Source of the DNA: Parietichytrium sp. I65-24A
Taxonomy: Eukaryota > Sar > Bigyra > Thraustochytrida > Thraustochytriidae
Length of the DNA: 64,000 bases
Assembly: GCA_012862575.1 (NCBI GenBank)
Contig: BLSF01000060.1
Span: forward strand, 205,136-269,135
Direction of reading: 5' to 3'
Part shown: positions 30,192-58,263 of the stretch, one piece after another
How the letters are laid out: each line of letters opens with the position of its first letter
Numbering within the stretch: position 1 is the first letter of the stretch
Made by a program: the position numbers and the translations under genes
The notes under the pieces: generated by a model
The model's input: the letters and a program-made list of their open reading frames with translations, nothing else
Database searches by the model: none
Told to the model about the DNA's origin: nothing

Positions 30192-30782
30192 ATGGTAAAT
30201 CAGGCAAGTGAGCATACCTTTGAAGCCTCTCGTGCGCTCTCTCTCTCCCCTCGAAATAATATATATATATATATACAAATAGTATGCTCGACTTTTCTTT
30301 GGTTCTTGTGCTTGCTACTTGCTTTAATTTTTTTCCTAAGGAGATGGCCGTTCTCAAGCTCGTGCCTGCGCACAATCGAGATAATTATTCTTCAGAAAGA
30401 AAGAACAAAATTTTTCGAGACGAAAATCACAAGACTCGGACAAACATTGTCTTTCTCAAGGCTCCAGTCCGCTGGAGCGCTACGAAATGTTGAGTCCGTT
30501 TACAATTCCTGCTCCCAACCTATCTCTCCAGGATCGGACCAAACAGATGAATGCTTGAGTGACGACGAGTTTCAAGAACTATTATCGGACTGCGGCCGGA
30601 ATTTTGAGCCAACAGATACATGCTTGAGTGACGACGAGTTCCACGAAGTATTATCGCACTGCGGCCCGAATTTTGAGCCGCTCTTGCCAAACAACACGCA
30701 TGGTCAGGATTTCGAATTCTCGAAAATGGATGAAGAGGATATATTTGGGGGTGGCAGAACTCCGGAAAACATTCTCGTGTAA
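30192..30782 (+). CDS. Hypothetical protein with a duplicated 23-residue acidic motif; possible retrocopy
   Basis: A 196-residue open frame. The first 100 residues include a hydrophobic stretch (CSTFLWFLCLLLALIFFL) that may be chance over an AT-rich leader. The C-terminal half has two tandem units of 23 residues, CLSDDEFQELLSDCGRNFEP and CLSDDEFHEVLSHCGPNFEP (the first three residues of each are TDE or TDT). They are encoded by 69-bp repeats at 30543-30611 and 30612-30680. It ends MDEEDIFGGGRTPENILV. A 19-base A run starts 32 bases after the stop. No family is recognised. The true start may be internal; overall coding status is uncertain. Confidence 0.35.
   Translation: MVNQASEHTFEASRALSLSPRNNIYIYIQIVCSTFLWFLCLLLALIFFLRRWPFSSSCLRTIEIIILQKERTKFFETKITRLGQTLSFSRLQSAGALRNVESVYNSCSQPISPGSDQTDECLSDDEFQELLSDCGRNFEPTDTCLSDDEFHEVLSHCGPNFEPLLPNNTHGQDFEFSKMDEEDIFGGGRTPENILV
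30543..30680 (+). repeat. 69-bp tandem duplication inside an open frame
   Basis: Two adjacent 69-bp units encode near-identical 23-residue motifs. Differences between units are a mix of silent and amino-acid changing substitutions, and the frame is kept. Confidence 0.9.
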
Positions 30783-41642: not shown

Positions 41643-41846
41643 ATGAAGTGGCTCTCGGCACTCCTCTTCGCGACGGCGCTCGCGAGCGGCTCCGGCGCGT
41701 CCCTCCGCGGCGCTGTGCAAGACAAGGCCCTCGCTGAGACACAGCAAGGCAATCGTTGGTTTCCTTCTACCACGTTTCAAGGTTTCGCGGGGAAGATTGA
41801 CTGCACCAGGCCAGGAGCGACTTCCGGAAGCTACATTTACTGCTAA
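41643..41846 (+). CDS. Small secreted protein with SLRxAVQ leader motif
   Basis: A 67-residue protein. MKWLSALLFATALASGSG is a clear signal peptide. It is followed by ASLRGAVQDKALAETQQ, a charged helix-like leader, then GNRWFPSTTFQGFAGKI and DCTRPGATSGSYIYC with two cysteines (the second at the C-terminus). The leader closely matches that of the repeat precursor at 44270-44566 (TSLRAAVQESIASESAQ). The frame extends upstream of the signal peptide, but an internal start at 41643 fits the signal sequence exactly. No known family is recognised. It is likely a secreted peptide precursor or cell-wall peptide. The 3' end could be altered by an unseen intron. Confidence 0.55.
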   Translation: MKWLSALLFATALASGSGASLRGAVQDKALAETQQGNRWFPSTTFQGFAGKIDCTRPGATSGSYIYC

Positions 41847-42810
41847 AGTGTCCGGTTGGAGCTTCGAAACGGCTGACACCCTTCGCTGGGGCGCTACTTC
41901 TTCCAGCCACAAGCCTGTGCGCGCTCGTTGTCGTAACTCTAATCGGAAGCACCATCAAAAATTGTTTGTCGTTTCTTAATCAAGCCGCCCCTTACCCCTT
42001 TGACCTTCTTGTCGCCCCCTCGCCTTCAAGCTGTGCCCTAAGGAAAGTGCGAGTCCGTGGAAACTCATGCATTTCACTTATGGAGGACCTGCGTTTGCGA
42101 GGCAATGGGCGACCATCAGCTCGGGGCGACCGTTGGCAAAACTTCATCTATGGCCGATGTGGCTGGCCGGAGCCGCTGAATTAAACAAGTTCCCGCCCGC
42201 GCGATTGCAACAATCACAGATCAAAAGAACTATACCTGTAGGTACATTCTCGTGGACCAGCCTCATGGCCGAGAGTCCAGCGCCCCGCTGTTTGCATACG
42301 CTTTCGAAAGGTTAAGTGGTTCGATTGTTGAAAAAAAGAAAAAGTTCCATTAGGTCTCCGCGAAGACTGTTGCTCAGGCTGTTGCGATGCAATGCAAAGC
42401 AATGCACGTGAAGGAGCGCGCCATCTCTCGCCCCACATGATCAATCTTCACCACATAATTGGCTGAGCCACATCCGATCTATCCTATCTCGAAAAGAGAG
42501 AACCAAGCATCCAATCGAGAGCACCCATGCCTCCGAGATGAACAACAAGCCCATCATCCACCATCCATCACCCATCCGCCTCCCATCTCTTCAGAGCCTC
42601 ACCATCAGCTGCGCCACTTTGTCCCTTTGTCCCTTTATCCCTTTCTCCTCGTATTCCCCAGCTCTCGCTCACATCCACACTTTCGCCACTGTCGACACTG
42701 TCCACGCTCTCCGTTTGCTCTGCTCTTCGCTCTTCGCTCTTCGCTCTTCTTTCAAGCTTCCAAGCTTGGAAGCTTTCAAGCTTGAAAAGCACTTGGACAG
42801 AGAGAGAGAG
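41847..42810. other. Intergenic region upstream of the acid phosphatase
   Basis: No gene is recognised. Just before the phosphatase start are two overlapping HindIII-centred palindromes, CTTCCAAGCTTGGAAG at 42757-42772 and TTTCAAGCTTGAAA at 42774-42787. They are preceded by CTCTTCG repeats (42719-42750). Confidence 0.55.
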
Positions 42811-43998
42811 ATGAAGAGCAGGTCGCGGCTGTCCGTCCGCGCGTGCGTGAGCGTGTTCCGCCACGGCGACCGCAGTCCGGCGTCGAATCTTCTCTCGCGC
42901 GGCGGCGCGGACCCTTCGCCGTCCGCGGACACCGAGCGGCGGACGTGGTCGCGCCTGGTCGCCTCCGCGGACCGCGTCAGCGCTCTCTCGCGCCGCTTTC
43001 CCGTGCTGCCGTGGGACGGCGAGGGCAGGTTCTCGTTCACCACTGGCGCGGACACTGGCGCGGACACTTGTGCAGAGGGGTCCGCGGACGGGGACGCCCG
43101 GGAGGTGGACGAGAACCCGTTCGGGAAGATTACGGAGAAAGGTCTGGACCAGCTGGAACTGCGCGGCGTGGAGCTCCACGCGAGGTGGGGCAGGGTGCGC
43201 GAGGAGGATGTACTCGCGTTCTCGACGGGGTACGCGAGGACGCAGCAGAGCGCGCAGAGCATGCTCACGGGACTGCTGGGACGCGCGGGGAGGAGGGAGG
43301 AGGAGGAGGGAAAGGTCGTGGTGCGAGTCCCGCCAGCGGAGCGAGACGTGGCAAACTCATGGGAGGCGCACAAAGAGCTGCGCGACGCGATCTCGATGAT
43401 GAGTAAGACAGACAGGTTCTTCGCGGAGCAGGAGGACATGTATTATCGTGAACGCGAAGCGCTGTGCACGCTGCTGCCATATTACGAGGCGGACCCGGAA
43501 AGGTTTTTGTGGATTTTCTCTTGCGACTATTTCGTGTGCCGCAGAGCGCACGGCTTGCCGCTAGACCCCCGGCTGGAAAAGCACGAAAGCGCGGTTCTGA
43601 ACCACACAATCGGCCGGTTTATCAGGTGGTACAGCGATCCTGACATTGTGCAACTCGCGGCTGGAGGCCTTCTCAGTGCAATAAAGCGCCACCTCGCTGA
43701 TGCTGTGCAAAGGCCGGATGCCAAAAGGTTTGTCTTCTACAGTGGGCACGACATCACGGTTCTTCCTCTCCTCTCCGCGATCAAAAGATTTGAGCAACTG
43801 GAGTTCGTTTCGTTCGAGCAGCACTGGCCAAAGTACGGGAGCATTCTTTGCTTTGAGCTGCTGTCCGAGGACCCCTCTTCGCGAAGAATCGAGGATTTGC
43901 TAATTCGCGTGGTGTATAACAATGCTGAGCTGATTGCGCCTTGTGCTTTCAACGAGTTTTGGGACAAGCGCGTCCGGGTTGACACAAGAGAGCACTAG
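42811..43998 (+). CDS. Histidine acid phosphatase family protein
   Basis: A 395-residue protein from the ATG at 42811. The catalytic N-terminal motif is VSVFRHGDRSP at residues 13-23 (RHGxRxP), with the phosphorylated histidine at 18. The C-terminal acid/base motif is FYSGHDITVLPLLSAIKRF (HD). Between them KITEKGLDQLELRG and AFSTGYARTQQSAQSML match the branch-2 histidine phosphatase layout. The family hydrolyses phosphomonoesters including lysophosphatidate, inositol phosphates and phospho-xylose. The closest look-alikes are the ACP6/PXYLP1-type enzymes, but the substrate cannot be told. The frame is open upstream to an ATG at 42538, which would add 91 residues of unlikely composition. No signal peptide is present from 42811. 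Confidence 0.85.
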   Translation: MKSRSRLSVRACVSVFRHGDRSPASNLLSRGGADPSPSADTERRTWSRLVASADRVSALSRRFPVLPWDGEGRFSFTTGADTGADTCAEGSADGDAREVDENPFGKITEKGLDQLELRGVELHARWGRVREEDVLAFSTGYARTQQSAQSMLTGLLGRAGRREEEEGKVVVRVPPAERDVANSWEAHKELRDAISMMSKTDRFFAEQEDMYYREREALCTLLPYYEADPERFLWIFSCDYFVCRRAHGLPLDPRLEKHESAVLNHTIGRFIRWYSDPDIVQLAAGGLLSAIKRHLADAVQRPDAKRFVFYSGHDITVLPLLSAIKRFEQLEFVSFEQHWPKYGSILCFELLSEDPSSRRIEDLLIRVVYNNAELIAPCAFNEFWDKRVRVDTREH

Positions 43999-44269: not shown

Positions 44270-44566
44270 TTAGAAGAAACGTGGGTTTGGTGGGCGAGTG
44301 CGGCGCTCCTCTTCAACGAAGAAACGTGGGTTTGGTGGGCGAGTGCGGCGCTCCTCTTCAACGAAGAAACGTGGGTTTGGTGGGCGAGTGCGGCTCTCCT
44401 CCTCAACGAAGAAACGTGGGTTTGGTGGGCGAGTGCGGCGCTCCTCCTCAACAAGCTGTGCGCTCTCCGAGGCGATGCTCTCTTGCACGGCAGCCCTGAG
44501 GCTGGTCTTGGCGCCTGCAGCGACGGAAGCCACGAAGGCGAGGATAGCGACGGAAAAGAACTTCAT
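44270..44566 (-). CDS. Secreted repeat-peptide precursor (four 15-residue units)
   Basis: A 98-residue protein. MKFFSVAILAFVASVAAGA is a signal peptide. TSLRAAVQESIASESAQL is a leader nearly shared with the protein at 41643-41846. The rest, to the stop, is exactly four tandem units of VEEERRTRPPNPRFF (unit 2 has Ser for the first Arg). Each unit has an acidic half, a basic RRTR site fitting the minimal R-x-x-R proprotein-convertase rule, and a Pro-rich PPNPRFF. This is the layout of multi-copy secreted peptide precursors, including peptide hormones, pheromones and some RiPPs. The mature product is inferred, not known. No Cys is present. The ATG at 44564-44566 precisely begins the signal peptide. 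It sits beside, and converges with, the phosphatase gene. Confidence 0.7.
   Translation of the reverse strand: MKFFSVAILAFVASVAAGAKTSLRAAVQESIASESAQLVEEERRTRPPNPRFFVEEESRTRPPNPRFFVEEERRTRPPNPRFFVEEERRTRPPNPRFF
44273..44452 (-). repeat. Four 45-bp in-frame tandem repeats coding peptide units
   Basis: Copies occupy 44273-44317, 44318-44362, 44363-44407 and 44408-44452. They differ at only two or three positions, almost all silent, the exception being the Arg-to-Ser change in copy 44363-44407. The last unit runs directly into the stop codon. Confidence 0.97.
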
Positions 44567-50713: not shown

Positions 50714-53294
50714 GCCGCTCACGCGTCACACGCTGTCACTCGATGTCCACGATGCCACACCTTCAGCCCTTTCCTTCTGCACGTTGTGCTCGGTCTACGC
50801 GCGCAATGTCCGTGCTTTCCGTGCTGTCTAGCCTTGCTTTCGAGATCTGAAAGTAACGATCGCGTACTCCACCAGGGTCCTCGTATGTTCCCGTATGTTC
50901 CCGTATCGTATGCCCTCGTCGCGGGTCAGCGTGTGTTTCGTTCCCCAATGTTCTAAAAGTAGGATTTTTATATTCGTGTTTAAGACTATGTGGAGACGTG
51001 AATCAGTCGTTTGCGTTCTCCAGACGAAGAGATTTCGATATTAAGCTGCAGCGCCACCATAATTATAGATTGTAGTAGCTGTTGTTGCGTGATGGAGGGG
51101 TTTGAGATTAACATGGCGAAGATTTGTCTTGGAGTGGAGGAGGAAAGTCATGTCACTTTGGTCGAAAGTGAAGAGGTGGTGGCGTCGCGGAAAGAAGCGA
51201 TGGTGTAGTGCGCCGAAAGCGCGTATACCTCACACAAGCCCGATTGGATTGGACAGGCGCGACCCAGAAGCTCTGCGGCTTTGTAACAATTCGGGTGAAG
51301 TGGCGGAAAAGTACTGGCGGATACCTGGGATCTGGAGTCTGAAGTCTAGAGTCTGGAGTCTGGAAGCGGTGGCAAGGAAGAATGGGGATGGCAGCCCGCG
51401 GCGTGGCGATGGCAGCGGCAGTGTGGCTGTTACTGGCGATGACGGCATCTGCTATGGCCTTGGTGGCGATGTCGGCCATGTGCAGGAAGGACTCTTCGCG
51501 CGAGAAGCACGGCAGGAGACTTGCCAGGGCACGCGACGGAAATGTCGCGAGCATAATGGGCCGGTAAATATTGCGTGTGATGTGCCTTCCCTTCGCCACT
51601 TGATTCTTAGAGACCGAATCAAGAGGCGAGAGTTTAGAGATCAAAGCAAGCGCGCATTTGCGGTGGCGTCTCTCTTATTTATATCTTTTACAGATTTCAA
51701 AACACTTTATTACCTCAAGGTGAGTTTCAGTACTGTACAGCTGTAGAAAGTTGACAATCCACCTCCTCTTGCAGTTTGTTCTTTCTTTTTTATTGGTTTG
51801 ACCCTCCCCAAAAGCAGCTCATCGACGAAATGAAAGTCCGTCTCCGATCAACGAGAACTTTGCGCGCACAAGTACAAATCAAGTTGTAAGTCAAACGTCC
51901 TCCCATTCAGCCTTGCTCCAACAGCCCTGACTCAAAGCGAACAACGGAATTGTCGCATTGCACGGCAGAAGCGACACATTTCTCAAAACATTTCATCCTT
52001 CCATTGCAAAATGACGGCCAATTTTGTGGTTGACACTGAGTACGCATCTTGTATGATAAACGATGCTCAAGAGCCTATGCTCTTGTCTTGCCCAATCTTG
52101 TCCAACCCACTATATGACAGGGCACCCTTCGCTCCCTCTGTGTAAAATACAAATGGCACATTTACAGTCCATCCAGCTACTTTGCACACAAAGTTTCCTC
52201 CTATTTGTGACTAATTGTGCCAAGGTGACGGTTTCAGTGAAAGCGAATTTGAACGCTGTGACAGTGAGTAGCAGTGACCCCCGATGCTGTCCGCACTTCC
52301 TTTCACCCCCCCATGTCTCCCGACCGGTGCCTGTTGCCATTCATGCAGTTCCAGCGGAAGCGAATGATAGTTAGCAACGATAGCCCTGTCATATCATGTA
52401 GCTCAAAGGTGCAAGCTCTACTCAGATCACGCTTCGTCCAACGGACTCAAACGGAGAGGGCGCAGGATATGCCTCCTTCTGGAGAGTATTCAGTTCAAAG
52501 TGACTCTAATCCTTCAAGTCAATCGTCTGTTTTGTTTTCTTGCATTTATTCCAACCTTTGCATTCCCACTCCGAACTTGGTCAAACCAAGCCTGCGTACA
52601 AATCTCCAAACCGACCCCCTCTCTGGTCACTCCCAAATTGACGTATCGGTAAGTGTACTTGACGTTTGAGTTGTTTGAGAAGGTCACCATTCCTCGTCCC
52701 CACACTAGGCAGGAATTACAGCTAACTTACTCGCTGTGATTCGTTTCAGCTGATTCCTCGTGTGAATCGTTATTTCGGGGGTCAATTTACGCCTAAGCGA
52801 GAGAATGAGTATCACCGTCCTGGCCTTGTTTAGCTACAGCTCAAGTAGAGAGTTAAAGATAGGAACGATTAGAGTACTACACATCTCCCTATTGATACAC
52901 TACTGGCACACGTATGTTTGCCAAATTTCAGGGAATACTGCTTGAGTACCGCAGACCCCTAGTGGCATAATACATGTGTAGATACGCTCGTAAGCGTGCA
53001 TACGATAGGCAAATAGGCTCTATATAATTGGTACCGGTAGGGTAGTTGTATTCAAGTTCGAAGCTTCCAAGCCGCAAAGGCAAGAATGCGTTGATTTGAA
53101 GAGCCTGAGAGCCTGAGACTGAGACTGGGCAGAATCCGATCGGCGCTGGCGTTGGGAGAGCTCGTGTTTGATTTTGGGGTGAGACTTTCTTGGAGCGTGC
53201 GCGGATTGCGCGGGGCTGATCAGCGAAATTGAATCATCAAGTGCGGATACCGGAGGTTCTATAATCAAGAAAGAGGCGGTTTGCTCGAATCGAG
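50714..53294. other. Long intergenic region
   Basis: A 2.6-kb spacer. Overlapping frames at 51102-51746 on both strands owe their length to CTGGAGTCTGAAGTCTAGAG-type direct repeats near 51331-51365. GGTACCGGTAG occurs at 53030-53040. The last 150 bases resemble the region just upstream of the second GT77-like gene (TGAGCGTGCGCGGAT-like block), so the duplicated promoter begins here. Confidence 0.5.
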
Positions 53295-54908
53295 ATGATG
53301 TGCAATTTGGCACTGGGCTTCATGGTATTGGCAGCGCTGACGGTGCTGTCTAACATGTCGTCCTTGTATAAGATGGGGGCGAAATTTCGGGAGGATCTCG
53401 TCTCCTCAAAGAGTGAATTGCAAGGAGTAAGTCTTTCTGAAATCGTGAACGTGCCTGTGCCAACATGGACTTCGGATCAAGATAGCGAGCGCGTCATAGA
53501 GCAGATAAATACTGAGATCGCATCTTCTGCGGTCACCCCATTCTATGATGAGGTGGGAGAAGAAGAAGGACTCGAGCCTTGCATGTACAACCCGTTCGCT
53601 CCGGGCTGCGAAATTGTGGCCTATCCTCCAGAGCCACTCTCAGTTGAGGATATCAAGCTTTGCGATCCAAGGCAACACACCCATCTCCCAAGAGGCGATA
53701 AAGAGTACACTTGTAGCGAAGACCCTACTTGCATCAAATGCAGGCGCGGCTTTCAATTCGCGTCAGATGTCATCTCAGCATTTAGATTATCAGATTTACA
53801 ACAAGAACGCGCGGAGATGTTCAGGTCGAGGTTCACTAGAGTGCTTCCCGATGGGGAGATTGTGCGTCAACCAGTAGTCGCTGTGGCAATAAACTATGGC
53901 CAGCTCTATCTTTTGCTTAATTTTGTGTGCTCCTGTGAGGCAATCGGCCTCAAACCTCGCCAATTTCTATACATTGTCGCTACGGACAAAAAAGCCGAAA
54001 AATACCTCGTTGAACATGGTTTCATTGTGGAGCCTTTGAAGTGGCTAAGCAGATCTGGGCATGAAGGTGGTATCAGCTCGAGATATGTCGGATTGGCCAA
54101 CGTCGGACCTCACAACATCATCAATTCAATGCTCATAGCAGGCGTGGAGGGTCTGCTGAAAGAGGGATATCCCGTCTTGCTCATGGATGTTGACGTCGTA
54201 TGGCTGAAGAATCCATTCAAGATGCTCAAACGTGCGAGCGAAGGCAAAGATATCGTGGGGAGCTATTCTCCCCGCAACGACGCGTAAGTGTGATGCTCAT
54301 TCATATCATGTTTTTTATCAGACAAAAGGTGAAGCTTACGTCGAAATGTATGTACCATTCGCATTTGCAGGTTCGGACATGTAAACAGTGGAGCGATTTA
54401 CTTTCTACCAACGGAAAAGACAAAAGTCTTTGTGGGAACGCTTGTGAACCTATGTACCATCAAAGTCAAGAGTGATCAAGTCATGTTTAACTCCTTGATT
54501 CGCTATTACAAACTCCGACAGCTGGTGCTGTCAATTCTGCCTCACTCCATTTTTTACACTGTTTGGTCTTCTCACCCGAAGCCGATTCACTCTTATTTTG
54601 CCCACATGGTGGGAGAACATAAAGCCCAGCGGTTCATGATTAATGGACTGTGGATGTTCAACTCAACGTGTTCTTCATTCGACCCTGAGCTACACAACCA
54701 TACAGAAAGCCTTGGTCTGTTCGATATGAAAGTACTTGTCAAGGCGCCAAAGCCAGATAAGGAGGAAGCGAAAGGGGAAGCAAAAAAAGAAGCGCAAAGG
54801 GAAGCAAAAAAAGAAGCGAAAAGTGAAGCAAAAAAAGAAGCGAAAAGGGAAGCAAAAAAAGAAGCGAAAAGGGAAGCAAAAAGGGAAGCACCTTCAAATC
54901 ACGTGTGA
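53295..54908 (+). CDS. GT77-like glycosyltransferase, copy A, two exons
   Basis: Exons 53295-54283 and 54371-54908 give 508 residues. The N-terminus MMCNLALGFMVLAALTVLS is a signal anchor, implying a type II Golgi protein. The luminal domain contains VVAVAINYGQLYLLLNFVC, QFLYIVATDKKAEKYLVEHG, then YPVLLMDVDVVWLKNPF with the DxD motif. After the intron come FGHVNSGAIYFLPT and INGLWMFNSTC. This is the nucleotide-diphospho-sugar transferase fold of GT77, a family that in plants adds arabinose or galactose to cell-wall proteins. The last 45 residues are a Lys/Glu/Ala repeat tail missing from copy B. Its paralogue lies 3.4 kb downstream and is nearly identical over the catalytic core. Confidence 0.88.
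54284..54370 (+). other. Intron in GT77-like copy A
   Basis: GTAAGTGTG donor at 54284 and TTTGCAG acceptor ending 54370, 87 bp. Without splicing, the GCG codon is followed at once by TAA. Splicing gives NDAFGHVNSG, in line with the family. Confidence 0.92.
54765..54890 (+). repeat. Lys/Glu/Ala-coding minisatellite at the C-terminus of copy A
   Basis: GAAGCRAAAARR-type 12-bp units in about ten copies, arranged as alternating 24-bp pairs. It encodes EAKKEAKREAK-type residues, likely a charged helix. Confidence 0.93.
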
Positions 54909-56033: not shown

Positions 56034-56687
56034 AGTAGCGAGCTACCAAGCTCTTGAAGACCACGATCATTAACATCCAGCTACCCAGCTATGATAGTAG
56101 CTAGCTAGCTATTAGAGTCTGTTTATAGGGATAGAAGTACATACAGAAGACGTTCCTACCTCAGTACGTAGAGTGGCAACTTTGAGCAACTTAGACTTAA
56201 CGGTACCACTGTTGGTGAAACTTAGAGTCGACTCGGACAATGCCGAATGTGCAGTGAGTGATCATGATGTCCATGGATGTGCAGTGCAGCACAGTGCAGC
56301 ACAGTGCGATCGAGACAAGAGATAACAAGAGCCAATTCGAAACAGAGAGGAACGAGAAGAACGAGAAGAGAGGAGAAGACAGAAGGAGAAGAGGCGAGGG
56401 CAAAGGATGCGAGTTCGTTGAGAGGAGCGTTGTGTCTGCATTCCGTGTAGCTGCCAGTTGTCCCTGCGTTCAGGCATAGAGAGCCAGGCATCCTAAAAGA
56501 TCGTGGAAGCAAAAGAGCGTGCCAGCGCGCGGGGAAAGATCTGGTTGGGATTGGCGGTGGGAGATCTCGGGTGTGGTACTGAGAGGAGACGTTTTGAGCG
56601 TGCGCGGATCGCGCGGGGTTGAACGGTGGGTGCGAATACACGCGGTTCTGTAGTCGGGAGGGAGGCGGATTGATCACGCCTATCAAA
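56034..56687. other. Upstream region of GT77-like copy B
   Basis: GTGCAGCACAGTGCAGCACAGT direct repeats lie near 56278-56306 (a 10-bp unit), and a purine-rich stretch follows to about 56410. The 130 bases before the start resemble those before copy A, so the duplication included promoter sequence. Confidence 0.55.
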
Positions 56688-58263
56688 ATGCGACGCAACT
56701 TGTTGCTGGCCTTTTCGGCATTGGCAGCGCTGATGGTGCTGTCTATTCTTTCGTCCCTGTATGAAACGGGTTCAAATTCGAGCGCAAATCTCTTCCCTGT
56801 GGGCTCAACACCCATAAAAGGTGAACTGCGTGGCGAGGGGTCCGAAGTCAATGGCGAAGAGCTTTCTAATAAAGCGCCAATAGAGCGCGAAGTCTCAGAG
56901 AGTGAACTGCGAGGAACTAGTCCTCCTGAAGTCGTGAACGAGCCTGTGACGACACGAACTTCGGATGAAAGTAGCGCGAGCGTCATAGAGCAGATAAATA
57001 CTGAGACCGCATCTTCTGCGGTCACCCCATTCTATGATGAGGTGGGAGAAGAAGAAGGACTCGAGCCTTGCATGTACAACCCGTTCGCTCCGGGCTGTGA
57101 AATTGTGGCCTATCCTTCAAAGCCACTTTCCGTGAAGGATGTCAAACTTTGCGATCCGAAACAGCACGCCCATCTCCCAAATGGCCACATAGAGTACACT
57201 TGTAGTGAAGACCCTACCTGCATCAAATGCAGGCGCAGCTTTCAATTCGCGTCAGATGTCATCTCAGCATTTAGATTATCAGATTTGCAACGAGAACGCG
57301 CGAAATTGTTTCAGTCGAGATTCACCAGAGTAGGGCCCGATGGGGAGATTGTGCGTCAACCGGTAGTCGCTGTGGCAATAAACTATGGCCAGCTCTATCT
57401 TTTGCTTAATTTTGTGTGCTCCTGTGAGGCAATCGGCCTCAAACCTCGCCAATTTCTATACATTGTCGCTACGGACAAAAAAGCCGAAAAATACCTCGTT
57501 GAACATGGTTTCATTGTGGAGCCTTTGAAGTGGCTAAGCAGATCTGGGCATGAAGGTGGTATCAGCTCGAGATATGTCGGATTGGCCAACGTCGGACCTC
57601 ACAACATCATCAATTCAATGCTCATAGCAGGCGTGGAGGGTCTGCTGAAAGAGGGATATCCCGTCTTGCTCATGGATGTTGACGTCGTATGGCTGAAGAA
57701 TCCATTCAAGATGCTCAAACGTGCGAGCGAAGGCAAAGATATTGTGGGGAGCTATTCTCCCCGCGACGACGCGTAAGTGTGATGCTCATTCATATCGTTT
57801 TTTTTTTTTTCTTGGCGAAAGGTAAAGCTTACGGCGACATGCATTGTTTTGTGATATTCGCAATTTCAGTTATGGACATGTAAACGGCGGAGCGATTTAC
57901 TTTCTACCAACGGAAAAGACAAAAGTCTTTGTGGGAACGCTTGTGAACCTATGTACCATCAAAAGCCAGAGTGACCAGGTTTTGTTCAACTCGTTGATTC
58001 GCTATTATAAACTCCGACAGCTGGTGCTGTCAATTCTGCCTCACTCCATCTTTTACACTGTTTGGTCTTCTCACCCGAAGCCGATTCACTCTTATTTTGC
58101 CCATATGGTGGGACTACATAAAGCCCAGCGGTTTATGATCAATGGACTGTGGATGTTCAACTCTACGTGTGCTTCGTTCGACCCTGAGCTACATAAGAAT
58201 GCAGAAAACCTTGGTCTGTTCGATATGAAAGTACTTGACAAGCCGCCAAAGGTAAAAACGTAG
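56688..58263 (+). CDS. GT77-like glycosyltransferase, copy B, two exons
   Basis: Exons 56688-57772 and 57870-58263 give 492 residues. MRRNLLLAFSALAALMVLS is the signal anchor. The stem region is longer than in copy A by about 30 residues and diverged (ELRGEGSEVNGEELSNKAP), whereas the catalytic core with LLMDVDVVWLKNPF is identical. The second exon begins with YGHVNGGAIYFLPT. It ends DKPPKVKT, with no Lys/Glu/Ala tail. The start is the ATG at 56688; the longer open frame upstream has no ATG. Same proposed role as copy A: a Golgi glycosyltransferase acting on secreted or wall glycoproteins or polysaccharides. Divergent stems with a shared core suggest different location or partners. Confidence 0.88.
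57773..57869 (+). other. Intron in GT77-like copy B
   Basis: GTAAGTGTG donor and CAATTTCAG acceptor, 97 bp, same position and phase as in copy A. The first 23 bases are identical to the copy A intron, then the sequences diverge. Confidence 0.92.

What the first reader, a model, noticed from the sequence alone, without database searches (positions are those of the whole stretch)
44270..44566. Multi-copy secreted peptide precursor in an alga-like genome
Seen: signal peptide, acidic/helical leader, then four perfect-length 15-residue units VEEERRTRPPNPRFF running to the stop. Each unit pairs an acidic stretch, an Arg-rich cleavage-like site and a Pro-rich PPNPRFF. DNA repeats differ almost only at silent positions, suggesting selection on the peptide. 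Known: this layout marks repeat peptide hormones, mating pheromones and some eukaryotic RiPP precursors. Inference: cleavage at R-x-x-R would release identical 15-mers with a protected N-terminal Pro-Pro. I know no described family with this sequence.
Basis: partly seen in the sequence, partly recalled or inferred. Interest (0 to 1): 0.82.

Follow-up and report, generated by a model that had tools for sequence, protein, structure and literature searches.

The report
Secreted protein with four 15-residue repeats
A microbial eukaryote appears to carry a small secreted-protein gene ending in four near-identical 15-residue repeats, which may be cut into copies of a signalling peptide, although neither its expression nor the cutting has been shown.

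Summary
The reading frame is real: 98 codons on the minus strand (44270-44566), with a signal-peptide-like start, a 20-residue leader, four 15-residue units VEEE[R/S]RTRPPNPRFF, and a stop directly after. The DNA units differ at two positions, one silent and one missense (R to S in unit 2, which removes its cleavage-like motif), so nothing shows selection on the peptide. No light-harvesting protein matched in the genome, so "alga-like" is doubtful. No kexin/furin P-domain matched, and 23 subtilase frames examined show no kexin-type motif. New: a 67-residue secreted-type ORF 2.4 kb away (41643-41846, plus strand) shares the leader (15 of 37 identical; SLRxAVQ) but has an unrelated tail, suggesting a common leader with different cargo. 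The leader's codon usage is gene-like; that of the repeats is not. No relative was found in the prokaryote and viral collections; eukaryote relatives could not be searched. Best reading: a small secreted protein, possibly a multi-copy peptide precursor processed without kexin. An uncut secreted protein, or an idle minisatellite tail, are live rivals.

The parts
44270..44566 (-). 98-aa ORF (ATG to TAA): signal peptide, leader, four 15-residue units
   Evidence: one full match in the 42.5-Mb genome
44513..44566 (-). signal-peptide-like N-terminus, about residues 1-18 (MKFFSVAILAFVASVAAG); exact cut site not determined
   Evidence: home-made hydrophobicity and -3/-1 heuristic, (its best-scoring cut falls later, after residue 25); SignalP not available
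44453..44512 (-). leader AKTSLRAAVQESIASESAQL, shared in part with the neighbour ORF
   Evidence: gene-like hexamer score; single-sequence AlphaFold helix over residues 4-45, low confidence
44408..44452 (-). unit 1 VEEERRTRPPNPRFF
44363..44407 (-). unit 2 VEEESRTRPPNPRFF (R to S; loses RR and R-x-x-R)
44318..44362 (-). unit 3 VEEERRTRPPNPRFF
44273..44317 (-). unit 4 VEEERRTRPPNPRFF, directly followed by TAA (44270-44272)
41643..41846 (+). neighbour ORF of 67 aa: signal-peptide-like start, leader ASLRGAVQDKALAETQQ, then an unrelated two-Cys tail GNRWFPSTTFQGFAGKIDCTRPGATSGSYIYC
   Evidence: leader match 15 of 37 identical, BLASTP pair E 5e-7; best non-self ORF segment of those examined
42538..43998 (+). 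histidine phosphatase (branch 2) gene lying between the two small ORFs, convergent with the repeat ORF; context only, the true start may lie downstream of the first ATG
   Evidence: Pfam PF00328 E 1.1e-15; PDB relative lysophosphatidic acid phosphatase type 6, E 1.9e-5

Best explanation
A gene for a small secreted protein, one of two neighbours that share a leader (signal peptide plus a SLRxAVQ segment, probably from an old local duplication) while carrying different C-terminal cargo. In this copy the cargo is four tandem copies of a 15-residue unit at the very C-terminus. The most likely working is that the leader takes the protein into the secretory pathway and the tail is then cut into several copies of a short peptide that acts outside the cell. 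Two cutting schemes fit the sequence. A cut between a hydrophobic residue and VEEE (L|V, F|V, F|V, F|V) would free four 15-mers with the same ends as the natural C-terminus and needs no kexin. A cut after RR (RR|T) is possible in only 3 of 4 units and would give one 30-, one 15- and one 9-residue product. Shown: the ORF, the units and the leader similarity. Inferred: secretion, duplication, expression, cutting and extracellular role.
For: Signal-peptide-like start, exact 4.0 in-phase units and a stop directly after the last unit. Leader frame gene-like: score 15.5, next best frame 5.9, 46 of 8234 null segments reach it. Leader shared with the 67-aa neighbour: of 944 ORF segments (self and neighbour included) only those two reach a score of 37, the next is 27; 0 of 20,000 shuffles reach it; in tblastn the neighbour is the best non-self hit of the sequence held (E 0.001, next 0.61). 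Six of the 15 identical leader residues use different codons, including Ser AGC/TCC and Arg AGG/CGC, so the likeness is at protein level. The array was found at one place only in the genome. The layout resembles published KEX2-processed repeat proteins, and 15 residues falls in their 9-24 residue class (PMC6339444, section 6 read).
Against: Codon usage of the repeat part is not gene-like (2915 of 4445 null segments score as high or higher). No transcript, peptide data or orthologue was available. Unit 2 lost both basic cleavage motifs. No P-domain convertase match and no kexin-type motif in 23 S8 frames. The neighbour with the same leader has no repeats. The leader motif is not a genome-wide class: a degenerate DNA pattern for SLRx[AV]VQ gave 97 matches (the pair included) against 133 for the reversed control, and none of the 7 further hits inspected, of 97, shows a signal peptide.
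Confidence: 0.42

Rival explanations
1. A small secreted protein that is not cut: the alternating acidic/basic and Pro/Phe-rich tail works as an uncut disordered, surface- or matrix-binding segment, and the repeat number is free to vary.
For: Tail modelled as coil with pLDDT 53-56 over residues 51-98, leader as one helix (single sequence, low confidence). No kexin found. One unit lacks the basic motifs. The neighbour with the same leader has a non-repeated tail. Surface-associated repeat proteins are known in fungi and oomycetes (PMC4617103, found passages).
Against: 98 residues with a 60-residue tail is small for a structural wall protein (judgement). No Pfam domain above cut-off and no Cys in this copy.
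Confidence: 0.3
2. The leader belongs to a real secreted-protein gene, but the array is a young minisatellite at its 3' end (or in an intron or untranslated part of a differently spliced gene) with no function of its own.
For: The units differ at 2 of 45 positions only, so the array is young or homogenised. Repeat codon usage is like the non-coding background. Five of six frames of the unit are open anyway. No paralogue with the repeat was found.
Against: The period is a multiple of three, the array begins and ends in codon phase, and a stop follows directly (about 3 in 64 by chance, simple arithmetic).
Confidence: 0.23
3. The whole ORF is a chance frame.
For: 64 of 2679 stop-free background segments score as well as leader plus one unit. 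Nine of 428 small ORFs pass the signal-peptide heuristic, seven of them neither this ORF nor its neighbour.
Against: The shared leader with the neighbour and the leader's gene-like score (46 of 8234).
Confidence: 0.05

Closest known systems
KEX2-processed repeat proteins (KEPs) of fungi (Le Marquer et al. 2019, PMC6339444; abstract, sections 6, 19 and 24 and found passages seen)
   Same: Signal peptide, several near-identical short motifs making up much of the protein, motif length in their 9-24 residue class, a dibasic site in most units
   Different: Dibasic site in only 3 of 4 units, in silico cutting gives unequal fragments, no kexin detected in the genome; the authors place KEPs at the base of the opisthokonts and report no good candidates in plants (their data not shown)
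Ustilago maydis Rep1, Hum3 and Rsp1 repeat proteins (PMC4617103, found passages seen)
   Same: Tandem-repeat proteins with Kex2 motifs; for Rep1 the freed peptides act at the hyphal surface
   Different: Longer units (18-55 residues), more copies, imperfect repeats; sequences were not compared here
Chlamydomonas prepropeptides (GATI-amide; PMC6919629, found passages seen)
   Same: Peptide precursors of a microbial eukaryote outside animals and fungi, with signal peptide and basic sites
   Different: The authors state that C. reinhardtii prepropeptides do not contain multiple copies of one peptide; here there is no Gly amidation site in the units
Dikaritin RiPPs such as ustiloxins (PMC6339444, found passages seen; the name dikaritin is recalled)
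   Same: Signal peptide and repeated short cores
   Different: No UstYa match (control uninformative), no Tyr in the units

Membership tests
KEX2-processed repeat protein (KEP) | N-terminal signal peptide | tested here: inconclusive
   Own heuristic positive; SignalP not available
KEX2-processed repeat protein (KEP) | At least three similar fragments after cutting at KR, RR or KK | tested here: inconclusive
   RR in units 1, 3 and 4 only; the fragments after the leader would be of 30, 15 and 9 residues, the last being the C-terminal one, which the published pipeline leaves out at first; the pipeline itself was not run
KEX2-processed repeat protein (KEP) | Repeats make up at least 15% of the protein | tested here: met
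   60 of 98 residues
KEX2-processed repeat protein (KEP) | A KEX2 protease in the organism | tested here: not met
   No PF01483 match at E<=0.001 (of 14 controls only Methanosarcina rang, so no kexin-bearing control). 23 S8 frames, of 25 matches, have HGTH (20), HGSH (2) or HGTQ (1), none the kexin-type HGTR (the kexin motif is recalled). An intron-split P-domain could be missed
Dikaritin-type RiPP (ustiloxin family) | UstYa oxidases | tested here: inconclusive
   No PF11807 match, but no control genome rang either
RxLR effector of oomycetes | RxLR motif after the signal peptide, then EER (recalled definition) | tested here: not met
   The leader has TSLR, no RxLR; EEER occurs in three units (sequence). 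That the genome is an oomycete is itself unsupported: no elicitin PF00964 match, control uninformative
Amidated peptide precursor | Gly before the cleavage site | tested here: not met
   No Gly in any unit

The most novel reading that the evidence does not exclude
A multi-copy secreted-peptide precursor in a microbial eukaryote without detectable kexin, cut at hydrophobic|VEEE junctions by another protease, and belonging to a two-gene leader family in which a common signal-helix leader is fused to unrelated peptide cargo.
Probability: 0.17. Interest if true: 0.7.

Novelty: new variant of a known kind. Interest (0 to 1): 0.36.

Why it matters
Repeated peptide precursors are documented in fungi and animals. 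The Chlamydomonas study states that prepropeptides there do not carry multiple copies (PMC6919629, passage seen). A precursor of this kind in another microbial lineage, without a recognisable kexin, would mean that multi-copy peptide signalling arose or is processed in a different way. The 15-mer is short enough to synthesise and test directly.

Tried and rejected
Homology: no Pfam family above cut-off (best E 0.31; no match for the neighbour). No PDB sequence. No relative in viral contigs or genome contigs (these hold viruses and prokaryotes, so a miss says little). In the own genome the repeat ORF finds itself plus two weak hits (E 0.056 and 0.69): the first has two stops inside the match, the second lies in a 496-aa frame on the same strand; neither shows repeats in the frames listed. 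The leader alone and the array DNA find only themselves. Papers: five literal peptide strings gave 0 papers. Topic searches gave none, which needed two of two leader strings and three general phrases, gave none; some searches gave the papers cited.

Leader family genome-wide: pattern search not enriched. The full 67-aa neighbour finds one more place, C1:77534-77638, E 0.002, 46% over 35 residues, with one TGA inside and no ATG in frame between the preceding stop and the match. None of the frames of 30 aa or more overlapping it exceeds 97 aa. It may be a relic or chance; the mature part alone gives E 0.006.

Organism: light-harvesting protein and elicitin gave no match; PfaA gave 13 matches, none over cut-off (best 143.8 of 1010 bits). 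No name could be given. No Rfam match and no tRNA (bacterial code) in the window.

Coding test: a first version trained with the window included and judged against wrong frames of real genes (0 of 870) was dropped as too kind; replace it.

Structure: single-sequence AlphaFold is low confidence (mean pLDDT 64.4, pTM 0.23), so no fold search was made.

Full report
What is there. The minus-strand ORF at 44270-44566 codes for 98 residues: MKFFSVAILAFVASVAAG, then AKTSLRAAVQESIASESAQL, then four units of 15 residues, then TAA. Unit 2 has Ser for Arg at its fifth position. Tandem Repeats Finder gives one array at 44273-44452, period 45, 4.0 copies. It has the highest score of 35 rows of period 12 or more and at least 2.5 copies in the window plus the loci then held (255,432 bases). 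The array begins and ends in codon phase, and the stop follows without a spacer.

Only two of 45 columns differ among the units: GAG/GAA, silent, in units 3 and 4, and CGC/AGC, missense, in unit 2. With one silent and one missense change there is no evidence for selection on the peptide; the array is simply young or homogenised. The missense change removes both the RR pair and the R-x-x-R motif from unit 2. The leader is not acidic (two basic, two acidic residues). The genome (42.5 Mb, 172 contigs) has no light-harvesting protein match, whereas the same tool finds 25 matches to subtilases, so an alga is unlikely. I could not name the organism. PfaA has 13 matches, none over cut-off, and elicitin has none (where no control rang).

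Is it coding? With a hexamer score trained outside the window (26,564 codons), the leader frame scores 15.5 and the best other frame 5.9. Of 8234 stop-free segments outside long ORFs, 46 reach it. Leader plus one unit scores 8.3, reached by 64 of 2679 segments. The repeat part scores -35.8 against a background median of -28.7, and 2915 of 4445 segments do as well or better. So codon usage supports a gene at the leader but says nothing for the repeats. An earlier version of the test that included the window in training, and wrong frames of real genes as background, looked better and is not relied on. Five of six frames of the unit are free of stops, so openness is weak evidence.

A neighbour with the same leader. 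Of 428 small ORFs (50-160 aa) outside long ORFs, nine passed a simple signal-peptide heuristic, among them this one and a 67-aa ORF at 41643-41846 on the other strand. The two share MK..S..L.F...SLRxAVQ....E..Q: 15 of 37 residues identical, BLASTP E 5e-7 for the single comparison, signal peptide included. Against the 20-residue post-signal leader, the neighbour scores 37. The next best of the 944 ORF segments examined (self and neighbour included) scores 27, and 0 of 20,000 shuffles reach 37; in tblastn over the sequence then held the neighbour has E 0.001 and the next hit 0.61. Six of the 15 identical residues use different codons. Downstream the proteins are unlike: four repeats here, a two-cysteine tail there. 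A histidine phosphatase gene lies between them. The neighbour's own coding score is moderate (149 of 8234 segments reach that of its first 38 codons, 133 of 3755 that of the whole), and its tail scores near zero. The motif is not a large family: a degenerate DNA pattern for SLRx[AV]VQ occurs 97 times, the pair included, against 133 for the reversed control, and the seven further hits inspected show no signal peptide. One weak, stop-bearing place on contig 1 resembles the neighbour.

How it might work. A signal-peptide leader plus near-identical C-terminal units suggests a precursor cut into copies. A cut after RR is possible in 3 of 4 units and gives unequal products. A cut before each VEEE, after Leu or Phe, would give four 15-mers ending like the natural C-terminus; this is my inference from the phase of the array. 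No kexin was found: no P-domain match (the only control that rang was Methanosarcina), and in 23 subtilase frames that show both catalytic motifs the histidine motif is HGTH in 20, HGSH in 2 and HGTQ in 1 (the kexin form HGTR is recalled). Two of the 25 S8 matches, neighbouring fragments on contig 50, were not among these frames. An intron inside the P-domain could hide a kexin.

Comparison with the known. The layout is that of fungal KEX2-processed repeat proteins (PMC6339444: abstract, sections 6, 19, 24 and found passages) and of Ustilago Rep1, Hum3 and Rsp1 (PMC4617103, found passages). In Chlamydomonas, peptide precursors exist but are said not to hold multiple copies (PMC6919629, found passages). 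Membership in the KEP class is not claimed, because the protease was not found and the dibasic sites are incomplete. It may still work like one.

Verdict. A probably real and probably secreted small protein with a young four-unit tail and a leader-sharing neighbour. The peptide-precursor reading is the best single one but below even odds. Interest is moderate because sequence alone cannot separate it from an uncut secreted protein or an idle minisatellite tail.

Noticed in passing
41643-41846: Small secreted-type ORF with the same leader as the finding and an unrelated two-cysteine tail; treated in the report.
   Followed up: yes
53265-54281 and 56598-57770: Two neighbouring frames with Nucleotid_trans domains (PF03407) that also share an identical antisense 39-aa frame: probably a recent tandem duplication.
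   Followed up: no
54764-54890: A 24-bp unit repeated 5.2 times (GAAGCGAAAAGGGAAGCAAAAAAA), between the two duplicated genes.
   Followed up: no
30542-30679: A 69-bp unit in two copies, 89% matches, reading frame not examined.
   Followed up: no
L016, L017 (G000 C64) and L024, L025 (G000 C50): Clusters of subtilase frames: five S8 matches on C64 and five on C50, two of the latter being neighbouring fragments.
   Followed up: partly
G000 C66:8562-22499: An open frame of 5583 codons with four stretches matching the same N-terminal part of the PfaA profile (ketosynthase, from memory), possibly a giant type I polyketide synthase.
   Followed up: no
G000 C4:850620, C16:640447, C29:520941, C31:154: The same 21-mer TCTCTGCGCCTCGCGGTCCAG occurs at four places, on C29 and C31 close to contig ends (C29 length); possibly a subtelomeric repeat.
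   Followed up: no
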